The notes under the pieces were generated by a model. The model saw nothing but the letters and a program-made list of their open reading frames with translations, did no database searches and was not told where the DNA came from. Shown here piece after piece: positions 5,392-20,616 of a stretch of DNA of 21,223 nt (its first letter is position 1; every line of letters starts with the position of its first letter). The stretch is from Syntrophomonadaceae bacterium. Its GTDB lineage: Bacteria; Bacillota_D; Dethiobacteria; DTU022. The stretch is from contig PWUG01000251.1 in assembly GCA_003562605.1 (NCBI GenBank), positions 1-21,223 of the forward strand. Reading direction: 5' to 3'. Both the position numbers and the translations under genes were made by a program.

Positions 5392-7071
5392 ATGTTTAAA
5401 GAGGATGTATTACAGGAAATAAAACAAGTTCAGGAAAGGTATAAAGAAGAGTTAGATGCAATTTTGGACAAAGCAGGTACAGAGAAAAAACATAAAACCA
5501 TGTCAGGTTTACTAGCTAAGCCCCTATATACGCCTGCTGATATTGCTGATATTAGTTATTTAGATGATATTTCTTTTCCAGGGCACTATCCCTTCACTCG
5601 CAATGCTTTTGCTGCAGGATTTCTTAGCCGTAGCCCAAGTATTAGGCAAGTGGCGGGTTTTGGAACTGCTGAAGAAACCAACAAGAGGTGGAAGTATCTA
5701 ATTCAACATGGCGCCACTGCTCTTTCCTTTGTAAGAGATGACGGTGGTGGCTGTCGTGCTGACAGCAATGATGAGAGGGTTAAAGGGTTGGTTGGTCACG
5801 GTGGTGTGGCTTTGGAAACGTTATATGATTATGAAACCCTCTTCGACGGCATTGATATACTTAAATACTCTGTTCACATGATCGCTTGTTCAGCCTTTAC
5901 CCTGGCGGCTTTTCTTATTATTGCTGAAAAAAGGGGAATTGACTTTCAAGAACTGAGAGGAAGCATGTCAAATTTTATGAGACCTGAACCTGAATGTATT
6001 GATATTATGGAGTATTGCGCCAGGCATGTCCCACAGTTTAACGCCGGTTATTTAGATATGCGTAATGTACGGGAAGGAGGTTGTACCGCCACTCAGGAAA
6101 TTGCTTTTGGTGTTGCAATTGCCATGGCAGGAGCAGATGCTTTAATAGATAGGGGCCTGGAAATTGATGATTTTTTGCACAGGATAACCTGGTTTGTCAA
6201 TGCAGGTCCAGAATTTTTTGAAGAAGTTGCAAAGTTTCGTGCCCTTAGACGAGTTTGGGCCAGGGTTTTTCGAGAACAGTACGGAGCCAAAGATGAAAAA
6301 AGCTTGATGGCAAGAATGCACTGTCAAACTTATGCTCCAACTCTTACGAAAGAAGAACCTTTTAATAATATTATCAGAAGCACGATTTATGCGCTATCTG
6401 CATTTATGGGGGGGATTCAATCACTGCATGTGAATTCCTTTGACGAAGCCCTTGCTATACCCACAGAATTTTCATCTTTATTATCGGTTAGAACGCAGCA
6501 AATCATAGACATTGAAACAGGTATTTCAAAAACTGTAGATCCAATGGGCGGTTCTTATTATATTGAATGGCTTACGAATGAACTTGAAAAAGAAGTTTGG
6601 GATCTTCTGAACGTTATCAAATCTAAAGGAGGGGGCACTGAAGCATGGGAATGGATGTGTGGCGAAGTAAGGAGCGCGGCAATAAAAAATCAAAATGAAT
6701 TTGATAGAGGAGAAAGGAAATTAGTTGGCGTTCACATACACGCTCCAAAAAATGATATTCAAGCAAAAGCATTAAATGTGCTGCAGGAAAATGCAGATTT
6801 CGAAGGCATCTTTGAGTATGATCCGACAATTATCGAAAAACAAATTGGAAGATTGAATAAAGTGCTGAAAGAGCGTGATGAAAAAAAACTAGAACACTCA
6901 AAGAAAAACCTTCTTAATAGCATGAAGGAAAGGAAAAATATGATTCCTTTTTTAGTTGAAGCAGTTAGAAATGGTTTGACCCATGGTGAATTTGCACGCT
7001 TGAAGGCTGAAGCTTACTCTCAAAATCCTCATGGTCCTTACGAATGCAACCCACCAATGGTACTTGCTTAA
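5392..7071 (+). CDS. B12-dependent acyl-CoA mutase, large (substrate-binding) subunit, divergent active site
   Basis: A 559-residue relative of the methylmalonyl-, isobutyryl- and 2-hydroxyisobutyryl-CoA mutase large subunits, TIM-barrel enzymes that rearrange acyl-CoA carbon skeletons by radical chemistry with adenosylcobalamin. Family hallmarks: YPFTRN (66-71), RQVAGFGTAEETNKR, EVAKFRALRRVWARV (278-292), NNIIR, GGIQSLHVNSFDEALAIPTE, RTQQIIDIETG and VDPMGGSYYIE (382-392). By eye, several substrate-pocket positions differ. The usual Tyr of TMY is Phe77 (also Phe in isobutyryl-CoA mutase). The SGYHIREAG strand, whose Tyr-His contact the substrate, reads DMRNVREGG (Arg224-Asn225). The QNDILKE segment carrying the substrate arginine is about 12-15 residues shorter. 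The segment near 113-127 is rewritten as FVRDDGGGCRADSND. It is probably a real mutase with an unknown substrate, not methylmalonyl-CoA. It is first in the TetR-controlled operon, 61 bases before its B12 subunit. Confidence 0.88.
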   Translation: MFKEDVLQEIKQVQERYKEELDAILDKAGTEKKHKTMSGLLAKPLYTPADIADISYLDDISFPGHYPFTRNAFAAGFLSRSPSIRQVAGFGTAEETNKRWKYLIQHGATALSFVRDDGGGCRADSNDERVKGLVGHGGVALETLYDYETLFDGIDILKYSVHMIACSAFTLAAFLIIAEKRGIDFQELRGSMSNFMRPEPECIDIMEYCARHVPQFNAGYLDMRNVREGGCTATQEIAFGVAIAMAGADALIDRGLEIDDFLHRITWFVNAGPEFFEEVAKFRALRRVWARVFREQYGAKDEKSLMARMHCQTYAPTLTKEEPFNNIIRSTIYALSAFMGGIQSLHVNSFDEALAIPTEFSSLLSVRTQQIIDIETGISKTVDPMGGSYYIEWLTNELEKEVWDLLNVIKSKGGGTEAWEWMCGEVRSAAIKNQNEFDRGERKLVGVHIHAPKNDIQAKALNVLQENADFEGIFEYDPTIIEKQIGRLNKVLKERDEKKLEHSKKNLLNSMKERKNMIPFLVEAVRNGLTHGEFARLKAEAYSQNPHGPYECNPPMVLA

Positions 7072-7082
7072 AATAAGAAAAA

Positions 7083-7102
7083 CAGCCTCGATTTAGAGGC
7101 TG
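7083..7102 (+). other. Intercistronic hairpin between the mutase subunit genes
   Basis: CAGCCTC (7083-7089) and GAGGCTG (7096-7102) form a perfect 7-bp stem with a 6-base loop, 11 bases after the large-subunit stop. No T run follows, so it is not a classical terminator. It may protect the upstream mRNA 3' end or tune the ratio of large to small subunit. Confidence 0.5.
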
Positions 7103-7132
7103 CAGAACAAAATGTCGGGAGGATAATTTGTT

Positions 7133-7549
7133 ATGGTCGAGGAGAGAAAAGTAAAATTTTTATTAAGCAGGGGAGATTTTTATCATCAAAGAGGCTACTG
7201 GGTTATAGCCAACCTTCTTAGAGATGCCGGACTTGAAGTAATTCTGGGAGGCATTCAAACAATTGAAGAAATCGTAGAATCTGCAATTCAGGAAGACGTA
7301 AGTGTCATTGGGTATCGTATTATGGACGGGTCCCCAAAAGTAATACTACCTAAGCTTCTGGCCAAGATGGAAGAAAGAGGCATAGGTAACGTACCCGTTG
7401 TTGTTGGCGGTATTATTCCCAGAAAAGATGAAGAGATCATTAAAGAATTGGGCGTAAAAGAAGTCTTTCATCCCTTTACTCCCCAGGATGTTATTGTAGA
7501 GCGCTGCAAGACAATAGGAAATGAATACTTAAAGGTTTCTAAAGGATAG
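7133..7549 (+). CDS. B12-binding small subunit of the acyl-CoA mutase
   Basis: 138 residues, the usual size of the separate cobalamin-binding (Rossmann-like) subunit. It has the DAGLEVILGGIQTIEEIVESAIQEDVSVIG block and VVVGGIIPRKDEE (about 89-101), so the fold is clear. The lower-ligand histidine is kept (His18, with Gly21 in HQRG). But the normal DxHxxG motif reads GDFYHQRG: the position two before His is Phe and the only Asp is three before. The SxL motif (LSILSG in relatives) reads YRIMDG, with Arg at the Ser position. The ATG at 7133 has GGGAGG nine bases upstream. It follows the large subunit in the same operon and presumably forms the holoenzyme with it. Base-off/His-on binding is expected from His18, but the Asp-His-base network must be different. 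Confidence 0.88.
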   Translation: MVEERKVKFLLSRGDFYHQRGYWVIANLLRDAGLEVILGGIQTIEEIVESAIQEDVSVIGYRIMDGSPKVILPKLLAKMEERGIGNVPVVVGGIIPRKDEEIIKELGVKEVFHPFTPQDVIVERCKTIGNEYLKVSKG

Positions 7550-12387: not shown

Positions 12388-13311
12388 ATGAATAACAAAG
12401 TCATTATCACCGCTGCCATTACTGGCGCCATCCATGTTCCCACCATGTCCCCATATCTACCGATTACCCCTGAGCAAATCATTGACGAAGCTGTTAAGGC
12501 ACACGATGCGGGGGCCGCAGTGGTACACATCCACGCCAGGAACCCCAAAGACGGGAGACCTTCAGCGGATCTAGAGCTGTATCGGATAATTCTGGAAGGC
12601 ATCAAAAAACGATGTGATGTTGTGGTCTGCGTTACCACAGGGGGTGGGGCAGGTATGAGCCTGGAAGAGCGCATCGCTGCTGTGAGGGAATTCAAGCCAG
12701 AACTGGCTTCTTTTAACATGGGTTCGATTAATTTTGCGCTGTATCCTATTGCCCAGAAGATCGAAAAGTTCAACTATCCCTGGGAGAAAGAATACCTTGA
12801 GTTTACAGAGGATTTTGCTTTCAACAACACGTTTAAGGCATTGAAATATTTCTGTCAAACCATGAACGAAAACGGAACATTGCCTGAGTTGGAAGTATAC
12901 GATGTGGGCATGATCAACAATACCGCTCAGCTTATCAATGAAGGCATTTTGAAGACACCCGTTTATATCCAATTTGTTATGGGCATCCTTGGAGGTATTC
13001 CTGCGGGTGTGGACAACTTATTGTTTATGCACAATACGGCCAGGCAGTTGCTCCCCGCCTTTCATTGGTCTGTTTGTGCAGCAGGACGCAACCAGTTTCC
13101 CATGGGAACTACGGGAATGGTGCTGGGAGGCAATATGCGGGTAGGGTTGGAAGACAGTGTATACATCAGCCGGGGAACACTGGCTAAGAGCAATGCTGAG
13201 CAGGTAGCCAAGGCCTCCCGAATTGCCAAAGAGTTGGGCCTTGAAGCAGCAGCACCCGATGACGCTCGCAAGGTTTTGGGATTAAAAGGTTTGGATAAGG
13301 TGAATTATTAA
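12388..13311 (+). CDS. Beta-keto acid cleavage enzyme (BKACE, DUF849 family)
   Basis: 307 residues. Family members (Kce and relatives) use zinc to transfer an acetyl unit: a beta-keto acid plus acetyl-CoA gives acetoacetate plus a new acyl-CoA. Zinc ligands are visible as His47 and His49 (VVHIHAR) and Glu255 in RVGLEDS, with Arg251 and Asp256 in the spacing known for Kce (Arg226, Glu230, Asp231). The opening ITAAITGAIHVPTMSPYLPITP and PELEVYDVGM are also typical. The keto-acid substrate cannot be assigned. Start ATG 12388 has GAGGAGG eight bases upstream. It lies 198 bases after DUF35 copy 2. That gap holds only AT-rich sequence, including an A6-GCA-T7 run at 12219-12234 too weak to call a terminator, and I see no promoter, so it is probably the last gene of the operon. 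Confidence 0.92.
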   Translation: MNNKVIITAAITGAIHVPTMSPYLPITPEQIIDEAVKAHDAGAAVVHIHARNPKDGRPSADLELYRIILEGIKKRCDVVVCVTTGGGAGMSLEERIAAVREFKPELASFNMGSINFALYPIAQKIEKFNYPWEKEYLEFTEDFAFNNTFKALKYFCQTMNENGTLPELEVYDVGMINNTAQLINEGILKTPVYIQFVMGILGGIPAGVDNLLFMHNTARQLLPAFHWSVCAAGRNQFPMGTTGMVLGGNMRVGLEDSVYISRGTLAKSNAEQVAKASRIAKELGLEAAAPDDARKVLGLKGLDKVNY

Positions 13312-17399: not shown

Positions 17400-17897
17400 T
17401 TACTCTATTTCAAAAATAAACTCACAATAAGGATCTCCAGCTGTCATTAACTTTTCCACTTTTATTTTTATATCGGGATTGACAATTTTAGCTGCCTCTA
17501 CCTCCATAGTACCGAGGGCTCTGCAGAAACTCGGGGGGACATCGAGCTTGGGAAACCACAAACACGGAGGGTAAAGCCTGTAATAGACCTTGTTGGGCGA
17601 TTCTTTAACCAGTTCAACTTTATAACCAATGATATCACCGGTGGCTAGTTTAAAATAGCTAGCCAGAGCCCATGGGTCTTTTCCTTGAATATTGAATTTT
17701 TCCATGCCTTCAACTACGAATTTTCTGGCATTATCTGCCATGAACTCCGAAAGGATCGCGCAGCTTTTCTCCTCGCCTAAAGTTTTATGCATTGTTTTGA
17801 CCAAGTTTTCAAAGTAGCTCCATCCCGTTCTATTGGATGCCTTTAGTTTTCTTATTTCCGTCCACTTTTCTTCATTGAGCTTAGGTTGTTCTTGCAT
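17400..17897 (-). CDS. L-2-amino-thiazoline-4-carboxylic acid (ATC) hydrolase-like protein
   Basis: 165 residues, cytoplasmic, no signal or membrane segment. The last third looks like the ATC-hydrolase family, in which a cysteine region and an NP motif precede a GDxxCxF ending: here PPSFCRALGTMEV, VNPDIKIKVEKLM and AGDPYCEFIFEIE. The founding enzyme opens the thiazoline ring on the way to L-cysteine, but most members sit in other contexts and their substrates are unknown. GGAGG at 17908-17912 supports ATG 17897. The gene begins 24 bases after the selenoprotein stop and is the last of the corrinoid / methyltransferase / selenoprotein cluster, so a role on the same, possibly sulfur- or nitrogen-containing substrate can be proposed. 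Family assignment is from memory and moderate. Confidence 0.6.
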   Translation of the reverse strand: MQEQPKLNEEKWTEIRKLKASNRTGWSYFENLVKTMHKTLGEEKSCAILSEFMADNARKFVVEGMEKFNIQGKDPWALASYFKLATGDIIGYKVELVKESPNKVYYRLYPPCLWFPKLDVPPSFCRALGTMEVEAAKIVNPDIKIKVEKLMTAGDPYCEFIFEIE

Positions 17898-17921: not shown

Positions 17922-18773
17922 TCATTTTTTGGGCAGCCAATCCTCCATGGTACCTCCTTCTTCCTTAATCATTTCCTGGACATCTTTCTGGTAACTTTCC
18001 CAACTGAACGTTTTTCCCCATTGGTAAGGAAGATCTACCACAATACCGGGAGTTGCAGCTCTTACCAGGGTATCCAGGGCATCTTTTAAGATATTCATCT
18101 GCAGGTGAATATCACCAGGCCTTCCACATTGATGTCCCAGGGGAAAATCAACAAATACAGATCTCGGCGGTCTGACTTGGGCCATCATATCCCTACAAGA
18201 GCCTATTAATACAGTGGGGATGCCTCTTTCTTCAATAGTTCGGGCTATCAGTCCAACTGACTGATGATCGAGGGGTCACGCAGCTACCAGGAGTAATGCA
18301 TCTGATTCCTGTTCTTTCAGAACCTCCAGTATCTTGGGGACGGTTTCTTCTTGTAGAGCCGTACGTTTATACAGCCTGCCCATTCCAAGTGTAATGGCAA
18401 GCGGTGCCATTTTCCCAATGCTGCCATCCTGCTCCAACTCCCAAAGCCGTTCTATGGGAAAAACACAATTCATATCTTTCAAGGCATCCCTGTGGTCAAA
18501 ATAATTATGATGCAGTTTAAGTTTTTCCTGGGGAGTGTCTTTCGGAATCTTGCGGAAACTCAAGTCATTAACGGCCCAGGGTTCAAAAGGCTCCTGGTTG
18601 TCCAGCGAGATTCCAGCCGAGCTAAGCAAGGCAATGCAGCTTTGTTTGAGAGGCTTATCAAATGGCGCCCACGGGCTTGAATCAAATACTGACCACTTAT
18701 AGGGCGGAAACCCGCTCTCTTGATACATCTTATTTAGTTTCTCAACATAACTGATCCGCGACAAAGCAATCAT
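17922..18773 (-). CDS. GrdB-like selenoprotein (glycine/sarcosine/betaine reductase B family) with in-frame UGA = Sec166
   Basis: 283 residues if the TGA at 18278-18276 is read as selenocysteine. Before it: YKWSVFDSSPWAPFDKPLKQ, HHNYFDHRDALKDMNCVFPI, ERLWELEQDGSIGKMAP and ESDALLLVAA. After it in the same frame: U-PLDHQSVGLIARTIEERG, PTVLIGSCRD, PPRSVFVDFPLGHQCGRPGD. Both halves match the GrdB/D-proline-reductase-related family, whose non-selenium members, as I recall them, have Cys at this point. TGA is a normal stop elsewhere here (gene ending at 2246), so recoding is local, and a stem-loop suited as SECIS lies at 18247-18265. GrdB-type Sec attacks a carbon next to an amine and cleaves C-N bonds reductively; this protein's substrate is unknown. 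ATG 18773 touches AAAGGA; TTG 18764 would have ideal spacing. It sits 28 bases after the UroD-like methyltransferase. A frameshift-free pseudogene is the alternative, but is unlikely. Confidence 0.85.
18247..18265 (-). promoter_or_regulatory. Bacterial SECIS stem-loop for the selenoprotein
   Basis: On the minus strand ATCAGTC (18265-18259), loop AGTTG (18258-18254) and GACTGAT (18253-18247): a perfect 7-bp stem. The loop starts 17 bases after the UGA codon and has G at its second position. This fits the bacterial SECIS rules (apical loop about 16-37 bases from UGA, a G among the first two loop bases). A lower TCG/CGA pairing across an internal loop may lengthen it. It would be bound by SelB, encoded elsewhere. 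Confidence 0.75.
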
Positions 18774-18801
18774 TCCTTTCGATTTATTTTTTTTCTCCAG
18801 A

Positions 18802-19845
18802 CTATGAACGATAGCGACCGTATTCTCGGGCGTACTGTAAAGTATGGACGACGTTTTCTTCTGTGCCGGGCACAGCACACCCTGAAGAGAGAATATAACC
18901 GCTTTTTTCTGCAGCGGTATCGATGCAATACCGGACCTGCTCCTCAAGCTGTTCTTTGGTGCCTTTTAGGAAGAGCTCTGTGGGGATGTTGCCTATTACT
19001 ACTGTCCGTCCCTGGTTTATTTCTACCATTTTTTCCAAAGAAGAGGGCCCATCGATACTGATCCCGTCCACCTCTGTCGCAATCAAATCTTCCATAATAT
19101 CATCAATTTTTCCACAAACATGCAGACAAATTTTAGCACCCGTGTTTTCTTTTAAAAACTGGATGGCTTCTATTAGGTAAGGTTTTGACCACTCATTAAA
19201 CATCTTAGGAGAAATAACGCTGCAGCCCGATGATGGATCGCCTAGAGTTATCATGCCTACACCTTCTCGAGCAATATTTAATCCAACCGTTTTTGTATAC
19301 TCCGTAGCAAATCTTAGCAAATCATGGACAAACTGTGGATCATCTTTAGTATCATAAATTAAACCGACTTCTCCCCTTAAATATGTTGCAACTGTCCAGG
19401 GGCCCGTAATTACAACATCAAGCATTGTATCAGCAGCTTGATTAACAACTTTTTTACTGGCCTCAACATAATAGGGCAGGCGTTGACCCTGCATTAAATC
19501 GGCCATTTTAAACCTATTGAAAAGAGATTTGTCCTCCAATAGTGATTTGCCTTTGCGTGTTAAATCAATTATTTCCTTAAAACTGATCCCGAGGCCTTCT
19601 CCAGCAAACTCAGCAGCCATTATGATGTCAAAGGCTGCAATTGTTATGGTATCAGAAGGCACCCTTTTCTGCACCCACAAAACATACTCAGCGTACTTAT
19701 CCCCCTGAGTACGCACCTCTTTTCTCGTTACACCGGGCATTTCTCCTCCTTCACCGACAGCATACCATACGCGTGAAGGAACCCTGTCTGTAAATTCCCT
19801 GTTAAAAGCTGCTTCAACATGATGTTTGCTGCTGTAGGCTTTCAT
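18802..19845 (-). CDS. UroD-family methyltransferase (MtaA/MtbA/vanillate-demethylase-like), zinc-dependent
   Basis: 347 residues with the uroporphyrinogen decarboxylase fold used by corrinoid-linked methyltransferases. The zinc triad of that branch is visible: His242 and Cys244 (ICLHVCGKIDDI) and Cys323 (LSSGCAVPGTEE). True UroD enzymes lack it and start differently. Such enzymes move a methyl group between a corrinoid protein and a thiol or a methylated substrate (MtaA and MtbA to coenzyme M; MtvB-type from aryl methyl ethers). The corrinoid protein gene lies 34 bases upstream in the same direction, so they are likely partners. AAGGAGGT precedes ATG 19845. The gene downstream is the selenoprotein, an unusual neighbour. 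Which methyl donor or acceptor is used cannot be decided here. Confidence 0.88.
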   Translation of the reverse strand: MKAYSSKHHVEAAFNREFTDRVPSRVWYAVGEGGEMPGVTRKEVRTQGDKYAEYVLWVQKRVPSDTITIAAFDIIMAAEFAGEGLGISFKEIIDLTRKGKSLLEDKSLFNRFKMADLMQGQRLPYYVEASKKVVNQAADTMLDVVITGPWTVATYLRGEVGLIYDTKDDPQFVHDLLRFATEYTKTVGLNIAREGVGMITLGDPSSGCSVISPKMFNEWSKPYLIEAIQFLKENTGAKICLHVCGKIDDIMEDLIATEVDGISIDGPSSLEKMVEINQGRTVVIGNIPTELFLKGTKEQLEEQVRYCIDTAAEKSGYILSSGCAVPGTEENVVHTLQYAREYGRYRS

Positions 19846-19879: not shown

Positions 19880-20515
19880 TTATCTTAATCCGAGCAATTC
19901 TCTAGCCTTTCCAACAGCCGATGCAGCATCCGGCGCATAACCGTCTGCCCCGATCTCATCAGCATATTTCTGGGTGACAATAGCTCCTCCTACCATGATC
20001 TTAATCTGACTTCTCAATCCTTCTGCTTCAATTGTCCGCACCGTCTCTTCCAGGTGAATTATGGTGCTTCCTAGCAGTGCAGACATCCCCAGCAACAAGG
20101 GTTTATGCTTTTTTATGGCCTCAACAAATTTTTCAGGTGAAATATCAATACCAAGGTCAATAACTTCAAAACCAGAACCTTTGAACATGATGCCAACCAG
20201 ATTTTTTCCAATATCATGGACATCATTTTTCACAGTGCCTATTATTATCTTTCCTTTAGGGCTTACATTACTTGCTACCATAAGGGGTTCTAAGATATCC
20301 ATGCCAATTCGCATCGACCTGGCAGCAAAGAGCATTTCCGGCAAAAAAATTTCTCCTCTTTGGAACATCTCGCCAATATCTGTTATACCTGCGATTAAGG
20401 ATCTGTTCAAAATATCTTCAACATTGTATCCCTCTTCCAGTGCCTGGTGAATCAGTTCGCTTACCTTTTCACCATCCCCCTCCATAAGATATTCTTTTAT
20501 TCCATTTAGCAGCAT
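19880..20515 (-). CDS. Methyltransferase corrinoid protein (MtbC/MtaC-like)
   Basis: 211 residues. A four-helix cap (residues 1-85, with LIAGITDIGEMFQRGEIFLP and MLFAARSMRIGMDIL) is followed by a Rossmann-like cobalamin domain with an intact DxHxxG motif (Asp98, His100, Gly103 in NDVHDIGKN), SxL (Ser145, Leu147) and the Gly pair (VGGAIV). It carries the methyl group between two methyltransferases in the cytoplasm. The frame is open back to 20569, but the inverted repeat at 20556-20616 runs into that extension. ATG 20515, next to GGGGGGAAGG, gives the normal family length, so I prefer it. First gene of the cluster with the UroD-like methyltransferase and the selenoprotein. No substrate-specific methyltransferase of the MttB or MtaB type is in the window. 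Confidence 0.9.
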   Translation of the reverse strand: MLLNGIKEYLMEGDGEKVSELIHQALEEGYNVEDILNRSLIAGITDIGEMFQRGEIFLPEMLFAARSMRIGMDILEPLMVASNVSPKGKIIIGTVKNDVHDIGKNLVGIMFKGSGFEVIDLGIDISPEKFVEAIKKHKPLLLGMSALLGSTIIHLEETVRTIEAEGLRSQIKIMVGGAIVTQKYADEIGADGYAPDAASAVGKARELLGLR

Positions 20516-20555
20516 ACCCTTCCCCCCATATGTGTTTTCATTAACAATTATAAAT

Positions 20556-20616
20556 AACATGACCTGCACTTCGAAAAGTACCGAAAAAACTGCCGAAGAA
20601 AGTGCAAGGTCATGTT
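20556..20616. repeat. 16-bp inverted repeat in the leader of the corrinoid/selenoprotein cluster
   Basis: AACATGACCT (20556-20565) pairs with AGGTCATGTT (20607-20616), and GCACTT (20566-20571) with AAGTGC (20600-20605), with one unpaired A at 20606. The 28-base loop contains further CGAA/CCGAA repeats. It begins 41 bases upstream of the corrinoid protein ATG, so it should be in the mRNA leader or overlap the promoter. It could be an operator, an attenuator or an RNA switch. No cobalamin-riboswitch B12 box is visible, no clear sigma-A promoter was found in 20516-20780, and no T run follows on the minus strand. Confidence 0.6.

What the first reader, a model, noticed from the sequence alone, without database searches (positions are those of the whole stretch)
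17922..18773. A split gene is one selenoprotein: in-frame UGA with SECIS-like hairpin
Two reading-frame pieces on the minus strand are in the same frame, separated only by TGA at 18278-18276, with family-like sequence continuing without a break. A perfect 7-bp stem with a 5-base AGTTG loop begins 10 bases after the UGA. Automatic annotation would report two fragments or a pseudogene. The Sec sits in a U-PLDH-QSVG context, which appears to replace a conserved Cys of non-selenium GrdB-related proteins.
Basis: partly seen in the sequence, partly recalled or inferred. Interest (0 to 1): 0.85.

Follow-up and report, generated by a model that had tools for sequence, protein, structure and literature searches.

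The report
Selenium-containing enzyme hidden by stop codon
A gene that looks broken by a stop codon is almost certainly one intact gene for a selenium-containing protein of the proline/glycine reductase family, from a side branch in which the usual partner cysteine is replaced by aspartate.

Summary
Observation and reading both hold. TGA 18278-18276 (-) lies in frame inside one PrdB/GRDB-family gene. Of 108 matches reported from 395 genomes of one phylum, 107 have TGA at that place and one GGA; 15 of 16 full-length non-Sec homologues have Cys there, one Trp. The hairpin is a real bacterial SECIS: its pairs form in 570 of 609 cells against 406±9 in synonymous-codon shuffles, with 28 inferred double, pairing-keeping changes. 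In seven genomes with close relatives, tRNA-Sec passes the cut-off in 7 (one barely) and SelB in 6. The window's own genome is not held, so its sel genes are untested. The start is probably TTG 18764: 280 aa, Sec163. PrdB selenoproteins are known, with motif UxxC (PMC1088965, PMC2398784, passages). This one belongs to a clade with UPLDHQ (UxxD), a cysteine next to the following strand that none of 99 UxxC sequences has, no PrdA/GrdE-type gene found in 7 relative genomes, and CoA-ester or methyl-transfer neighbours. Its function is inference. New variant of a known kind; moderate interest.

The parts
17922..18764 (-). Selenoprotein gene (PrdB/GrdB family, UPLDHQ clade), 280 aa, probable start TTG 18764, stop TGA 17924-17922
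   Evidence: start by alignment with relatives and ribosome-binding site
   Evidence: TGA at the aligned place in 106 of 107 sequences incl. the window and 2 of 2 further; Cys there in 15 of 16 full-length non-Sec homologues
18247..18265 (-). bacterial SECIS hairpin: 7-bp stem, 5-nt loop AGUUG with G at loop position 2, loop 17 nt after the UGA
   Evidence: fits the bSECIS constraints quoted in PMC13188914 (passages)
18774..18779 (-). probable ribosome-binding site AAAGGA, 9 nt before TTG 18764
   Evidence: sequence
18802..19845 (-). URO-D superfamily protein (PF01208; below the cut-offs of the MtaA/CmuA-type methyltransferase models), gene directly upstream, 37-nt gap
   Evidence: a URO-D gene, 31% identical, also lies two genes upstream of the relative in L126
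19880..20515 (-). corrinoid (B12-binding) protein, nearest to MtgC/MtbC models but below their cut-offs; start probably ATG 20515
   Evidence: start read from the sequence (GGAGGAAAAGGA before ATG)
17400..17897 (-). gene directly downstream (24-nt gap), weak resemblance to ATC_hydrolase / MetOD1, below the Pfam cut-offs

Best explanation
One intact selenoprotein gene. At UGA 18278, SelB with Sec-tRNA(Sec), recruited by the hairpin 17 nt downstream, inserts selenocysteine, and translation goes on to the TGA at 17924. The product is a one-domain PrdB/GrdB-beta-like protein with Sec at the start of a helix that follows a beta strand. The confidence given is for this much. Inferred only (about 0.3): the selenolate acts as nucleophile or reductant in a CoA-ester or corrinoid methyl-transfer pathway without a pyruvoyl alpha subunit; as the UxxC cysteine is replaced by Asp, the resolving thiol may come from Cys190 or Cys213 (numbered from TTG 18764) or from a partner.
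For: In-frame TGA in 106 of 107 and 2 of 2. Cys at the same place in 15 of 16 full-length non-Sec homologues. 104 of 104 short proteins among the best 120 hits end one codon before it. Hairpin: 570 of 609 paired cells against a synonymous null of 406±9, maximum 438 in 1000; arms slid by 1-4 bases 105-358 of 609; 28 double changes that keep pairing; G at loop position 2 in 87 of 87. Purifying selection on both halves. tRNA-Sec over cut-off 7 of 7 and SelB 6 of 7 relative genomes. PF09338 alpha subunit in 0 of 7 relative genomes, while the same search finds it on a prdA plasmid.
Against: The window's own genome is not held, so its sel genes are untested. One relative has Gly (GGA) with the hairpin intact and one homologue has Trp. 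G011 has no SelB over the cut-off. G002's tRNA-Sec passes by 0.2 bit, and this model rings over its cut-off in 5 of 14 control genomes against 2 for SelB, so the tRNA cut-off is not strict. On the tree 18 changes break a pair, and the outermost pair holds in only 68 of 87 rows. The extra cysteines follow the clade (Cys-form P0004 and P0007 have 193 and 216 too; 13 of 15 Cys forms have 103), so they do not prove a catalytic role; no distance was measured. Neighbouring genes differ between relatives.
Confidence: 0.95

Rival explanations
1. A pseudogene: a nonsense mutation or sequencing error split the gene.
For: An open frame broken by one stop; the hairpin of the window alone is only mildly unusual.
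Against: Same TGA in 107 of 108 phylum matches; purifying selection after the TGA; covarying hairpin.
Confidence: 0.01
2. UGA is read as tryptophan (a code-4/25 organism), or passed by plain read-through.
For: One homologue, P0002, has Trp at the place.
Against: The gene itself ends with TGA, as several relatives do; Cys, not Trp, stands there in 15 of 16 full-length homologues; a SECIS is conserved and relatives have SelB and tRNA-Sec.
Confidence: 0.01
3. It is the PrdB subunit of a working D-proline reductase.
For: Best family is TIGR04483 PrdB, E 4.7e-47; Terrisporobacter PrdB beside prdA has its TGA at the same place.
Against: 160 bits against a cut-off of 300; motif UPLD instead of UxxC; PF09338 in none of 13 window proteins scanned against Pfam and in 0 of 7 relative genomes, while the same search finds prdA in a control plasmid. 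Completeness of those genomes is not told.
Confidence: 0.04
4. The selenoprotein serves selenium or methyl-thiol housekeeping beside corrinoid methyltransferases, as proposed for type I mlp clusters, rather than a carbon-substrate pathway.
For: A corrinoid protein and a URO-D protein lie directly upstream; mlp clusters are tied to selenium use (PMC10418091, passages).
Against: Of ten chosen neighbours of relatives scanned, one is URO-D and none a corrinoid protein; others are acyl-CoA dehydrogenases, enoyl-CoA hydratases, O-methyltransferases, an amidase-family protein, an esterase and a DUF1847 protein.
Confidence: 0.15

Closest known systems
PrdB, D-proline reductase selenoprotein subunit (TIGR04483)
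   Same: Same domain; TGA at the same place in Terrisporobacter PrdB
   Different: UPLDHQ instead of UxxC (Terrisporobacter UGTCHR); below PrdB's curated cut-off; no PF09338 partner found; extra Cys193/216; 280 against 241 residues
PrdB selenoproteins of marine metagenomes (Sargasso Sea and GOS surveys, PMC1088965, PMC2398784)
   Same: In-frame UGA, Cys homologues, found outside clostridia
   Different: Listed there with motif UxxC (passages); the UxxD form is not named in the passages I saw
GrdB / GrdF / GrdH, selenoprotein B of glycine, sarcosine and betaine reductases (PF07355)
   Same: C-terminal part of the same domain family (PF07355 over its cut-off)
   Different: Match covers only profile positions 204-346 of 347; no UxxCxxC; 40.8 bits or less against the subfamily models

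Membership tests
Bacterial selenoprotein gene | in-frame UGA at a place where homologues have Cys | tested here: met
Bacterial selenoprotein gene | bSECIS: small loop with G at position 1-2, loop 16-37 nt after the UGA | tested here: met
   5-nt loop, G at position 2, 17 nt; constraints from PMC13188914 (passages)
Bacterial selenoprotein gene | sel machinery in the source genome | not testable with these tools
   no genome held; relatives: tRNA-Sec 7 of 7 (one borderline), SelB 6 of 7
PF07355 GRDB family | score over the gathering cut-off | tested here: met
   30.8 bits against 22
PrdB equivalog (TIGR04483) | score over the curated cut-off of 300 bits | tested here: not met
   160.4 bits
PrdB equivalog (TIGR04483) | UxxC redox motif | tested here: not met
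   UPLD; of 107 rows, 99 have the second Cys (one of these has Gly for Sec) and 8, incl. the window, have Asp
PrdB equivalog (TIGR04483) | PrdA/alpha partner (PF09338) in the genome | tested here: inconclusive
   0 of 7 relative genomes, control plasmid positive; source genome not held, completeness of the seven not told
D-proline reductase | proline reduction activity | not testable with these tools
   needs an enzyme assay

The most novel reading that the evidence does not exclude
The UPLDHQ clade is a separate selenoenzyme type: a one-subunit GrdB-beta-like protein without pyruvoyl partner, whose selenolate works on a CoA- or corrinoid-linked substrate, with the resolving thiol moved from the UxxC position to the end of the next beta strand (Cys190) or beyond (Cys213).
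Probability: 0.3. Interest if true: 0.65.

Novelty: new variant of a known kind. Interest (0 to 1): 0.42.

Why it matters
Among the best 120 of 421 hits in a large protein collection, 104 are only the front part that ends one codon before the active residue; of the few that carry a name some are called hypothetical and many PrdB. Read through, they give a defined clade with strong SECIS covariation and a changed active-site motif, which makes it testable what GrdB-type selenium chemistry does outside amino-acid fermentation.

Tried and rejected

Considered and dropped: the extra cysteines as proof of a moved resolving thiol, because they follow the clade.

Full report
What is there. On the minus strand, TGA 18278-18276 separates two open stretches in one frame. 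Joined, they match PrdB (TIGR04483, 160 bits, E 4.7e-47, curated cut-off 300) and PF07355 GRDB (30.8 bits, cut-off 22). Relatives begin at the place of TTG 18764, and AAAGGA lies 9 nt before that TTG, so I take 280 residues with Sec163.

Is the TGA meaningful? A search of 395 genomes, drawn from the phylum of G001 (the Desulfobacterales genome behind L001), reported 108 matches in 84 genomes; at most six candidates a genome were scored. I read the codon aligned with the window's TGA in the window and 106 of these matches: 106 of 107 have TGA, one (L046) has GGA. The two remaining matches also have TGA. All 16 full-length proteins among the best 120 of 421 hits were aligned: 15 have Cys there and one Trp. 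The other 104, one of them the window's own, end one codon before it. Both halves are under purifying selection: over 11 pairs pN/pS is 0.20-0.25 before and 0.22-0.38 after the TGA, with synonymous differences high (pS 0.58-0.93).

Is the hairpin meaningful? In the window alone only mildly: 1305 of 20000 synonymous reshufflings keep all seven pairs. Over 87 sequences distinct in this stretch (of 106 with TGA) the seven pairs are formed in 570 of 609 cells; synonymous shuffles give 406±9, at most 438 in 1000; sliding one arm by 1-4 bases gives 105-358. On a protein tree, parsimony counts 28 changes on both sides that keep a pair (wobble pairs allowed), 14 of them between the third base of the His/Asn codon and the first base of the Ile/Val codon and 9 between the Ser/Thr/Ala first base and the Gly third base; 18 changes break a pair. 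The second loop base is G in 87 of 87. The bacterial SECIS model asks for a G in the first two loop bases and a loop 16-37 nt after the UGA (PMC13188914, passages); here it is 17 nt.

Machinery. The window's genome is not held and the window has no tRNA. Of seven genomes with close relatives (G001, G002, G003, G011, G084, G123, G388), six have SelB over the cut-off, G011 not. tRNA-Sec passes its cut-off of 47 bits in all seven: 72.6-78.5 bits in six, 47.2 in G002. The tRNA model also passes in 5 of 14 control genomes and the SelB model in 2, so the G002 tRNA is doubtful; both are clear in five of the seven.

What kind of selenoprotein. PrdB selenoproteins are known from clostridia and from marine surveys, listed with motif UxxC (PMC1088965, PMC2398784, PMC13188914, passages). 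Terrisporobacter PrdB, next to prdA, has its TGA at the same place, as UGTCHR. Of 107 rows, 99 have that second Cys (one of them with Gly for Sec); the window and seven others have UPLDHQ, and adds an eighth relative. With 15 Cys-form and one Trp-form homologue these make one clade of 25 without intruders (local support 0.83); the Sec members group with P0002, P0004 and P0007 at 0.999. Of the 15 Cys forms 13, 2 and 3 have them, so Cys193 and Cys216 mark the inner branch. In the AlphaFold model (pLDDT 92.5) Sec163 stands between strand 156-160 and helix 164-179, and Cys190 (=193) between strand 184-188 and helix 191-197; successive strand ends could lie close together, but this was not measured. 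PF09338, the alpha-subunit family, is found in 0 of the seven relative genomes, and the same search finds it at prdA on a Terrisporobacter plasmid.

Surroundings. In the window the gene follows a B12-binding corrinoid protein and a URO-D protein (gaps 34 and 37 nt) and precedes a small gene (24 nt) with weak likeness to ATC_hydrolase; an M24 peptidase, a CoA ligase and a corrinoid adenosyltransferase follow on the same strand with gaps of 101-256 nt. I scanned ten chosen neighbours of relatives. Beside L126's gene, upstream an enoyl-CoA hydratase and a URO-D gene (31% identical to the window's), downstream an amidase-family gene; acyl-CoA dehydrogenases near L129 and L130 (in L001 recognised by eye only); an O-methyltransferase directly downstream in L128 and L131, with an enoyl-CoA hydratase 2.3 kb away in L128; an esterase in L129; DUF1847 in L002. 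L127's neighbours were not scanned. This suggests CoA-ester and one-carbon catabolism, but no neighbour is constant.

Verdict. Shown by comparison: conserved in-frame UGA, Cys at the same place, a covarying SECIS, purifying selection. Inferred: Sec insertion in this organism, a redox or nucleophilic role, a moved resolving thiol. Known kind, new variant.

Noticed in passing
L046 (genome G360): The Sec codon is GGA (Gly) while the hairpin is intact and the genome has SelB and tRNA-Sec; a recent loss of Sec or a sequencing error.
   Followed up: partly
P0002: Full-length homologue (63% identical) with Trp at the Sec place; TGG, or TGA read as Trp by a gene caller, not told apart.
   Followed up: no
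L125 529-1368 (+) and 3971-4711 (-): One contig of G084 holds two Sec copies 2.6 kb apart, one UPLD and one UPLC, perhaps a link between the motifs.
   Followed up: partly
window 19880-20569 (-): The listed GTG start of the corrinoid gene is unlikely; ATG 20515 has a strong ribosome-binding site GGAGGAAAAGGA.
   Followed up: partly
window 12388-13311 (+): BKACE protein scores just over the cut-off for 3,5-dioxohexanoate:acetyl-CoA acetone transferase (433 against 430 bits).
   Followed up: no
window 5392-7549 (+): Methylmalonyl-CoA-mutase-type large subunit and a separate B12-binding subunit; with the corrinoid protein and BtuR the window is rich in B12 chemistry.
   Followed up: no
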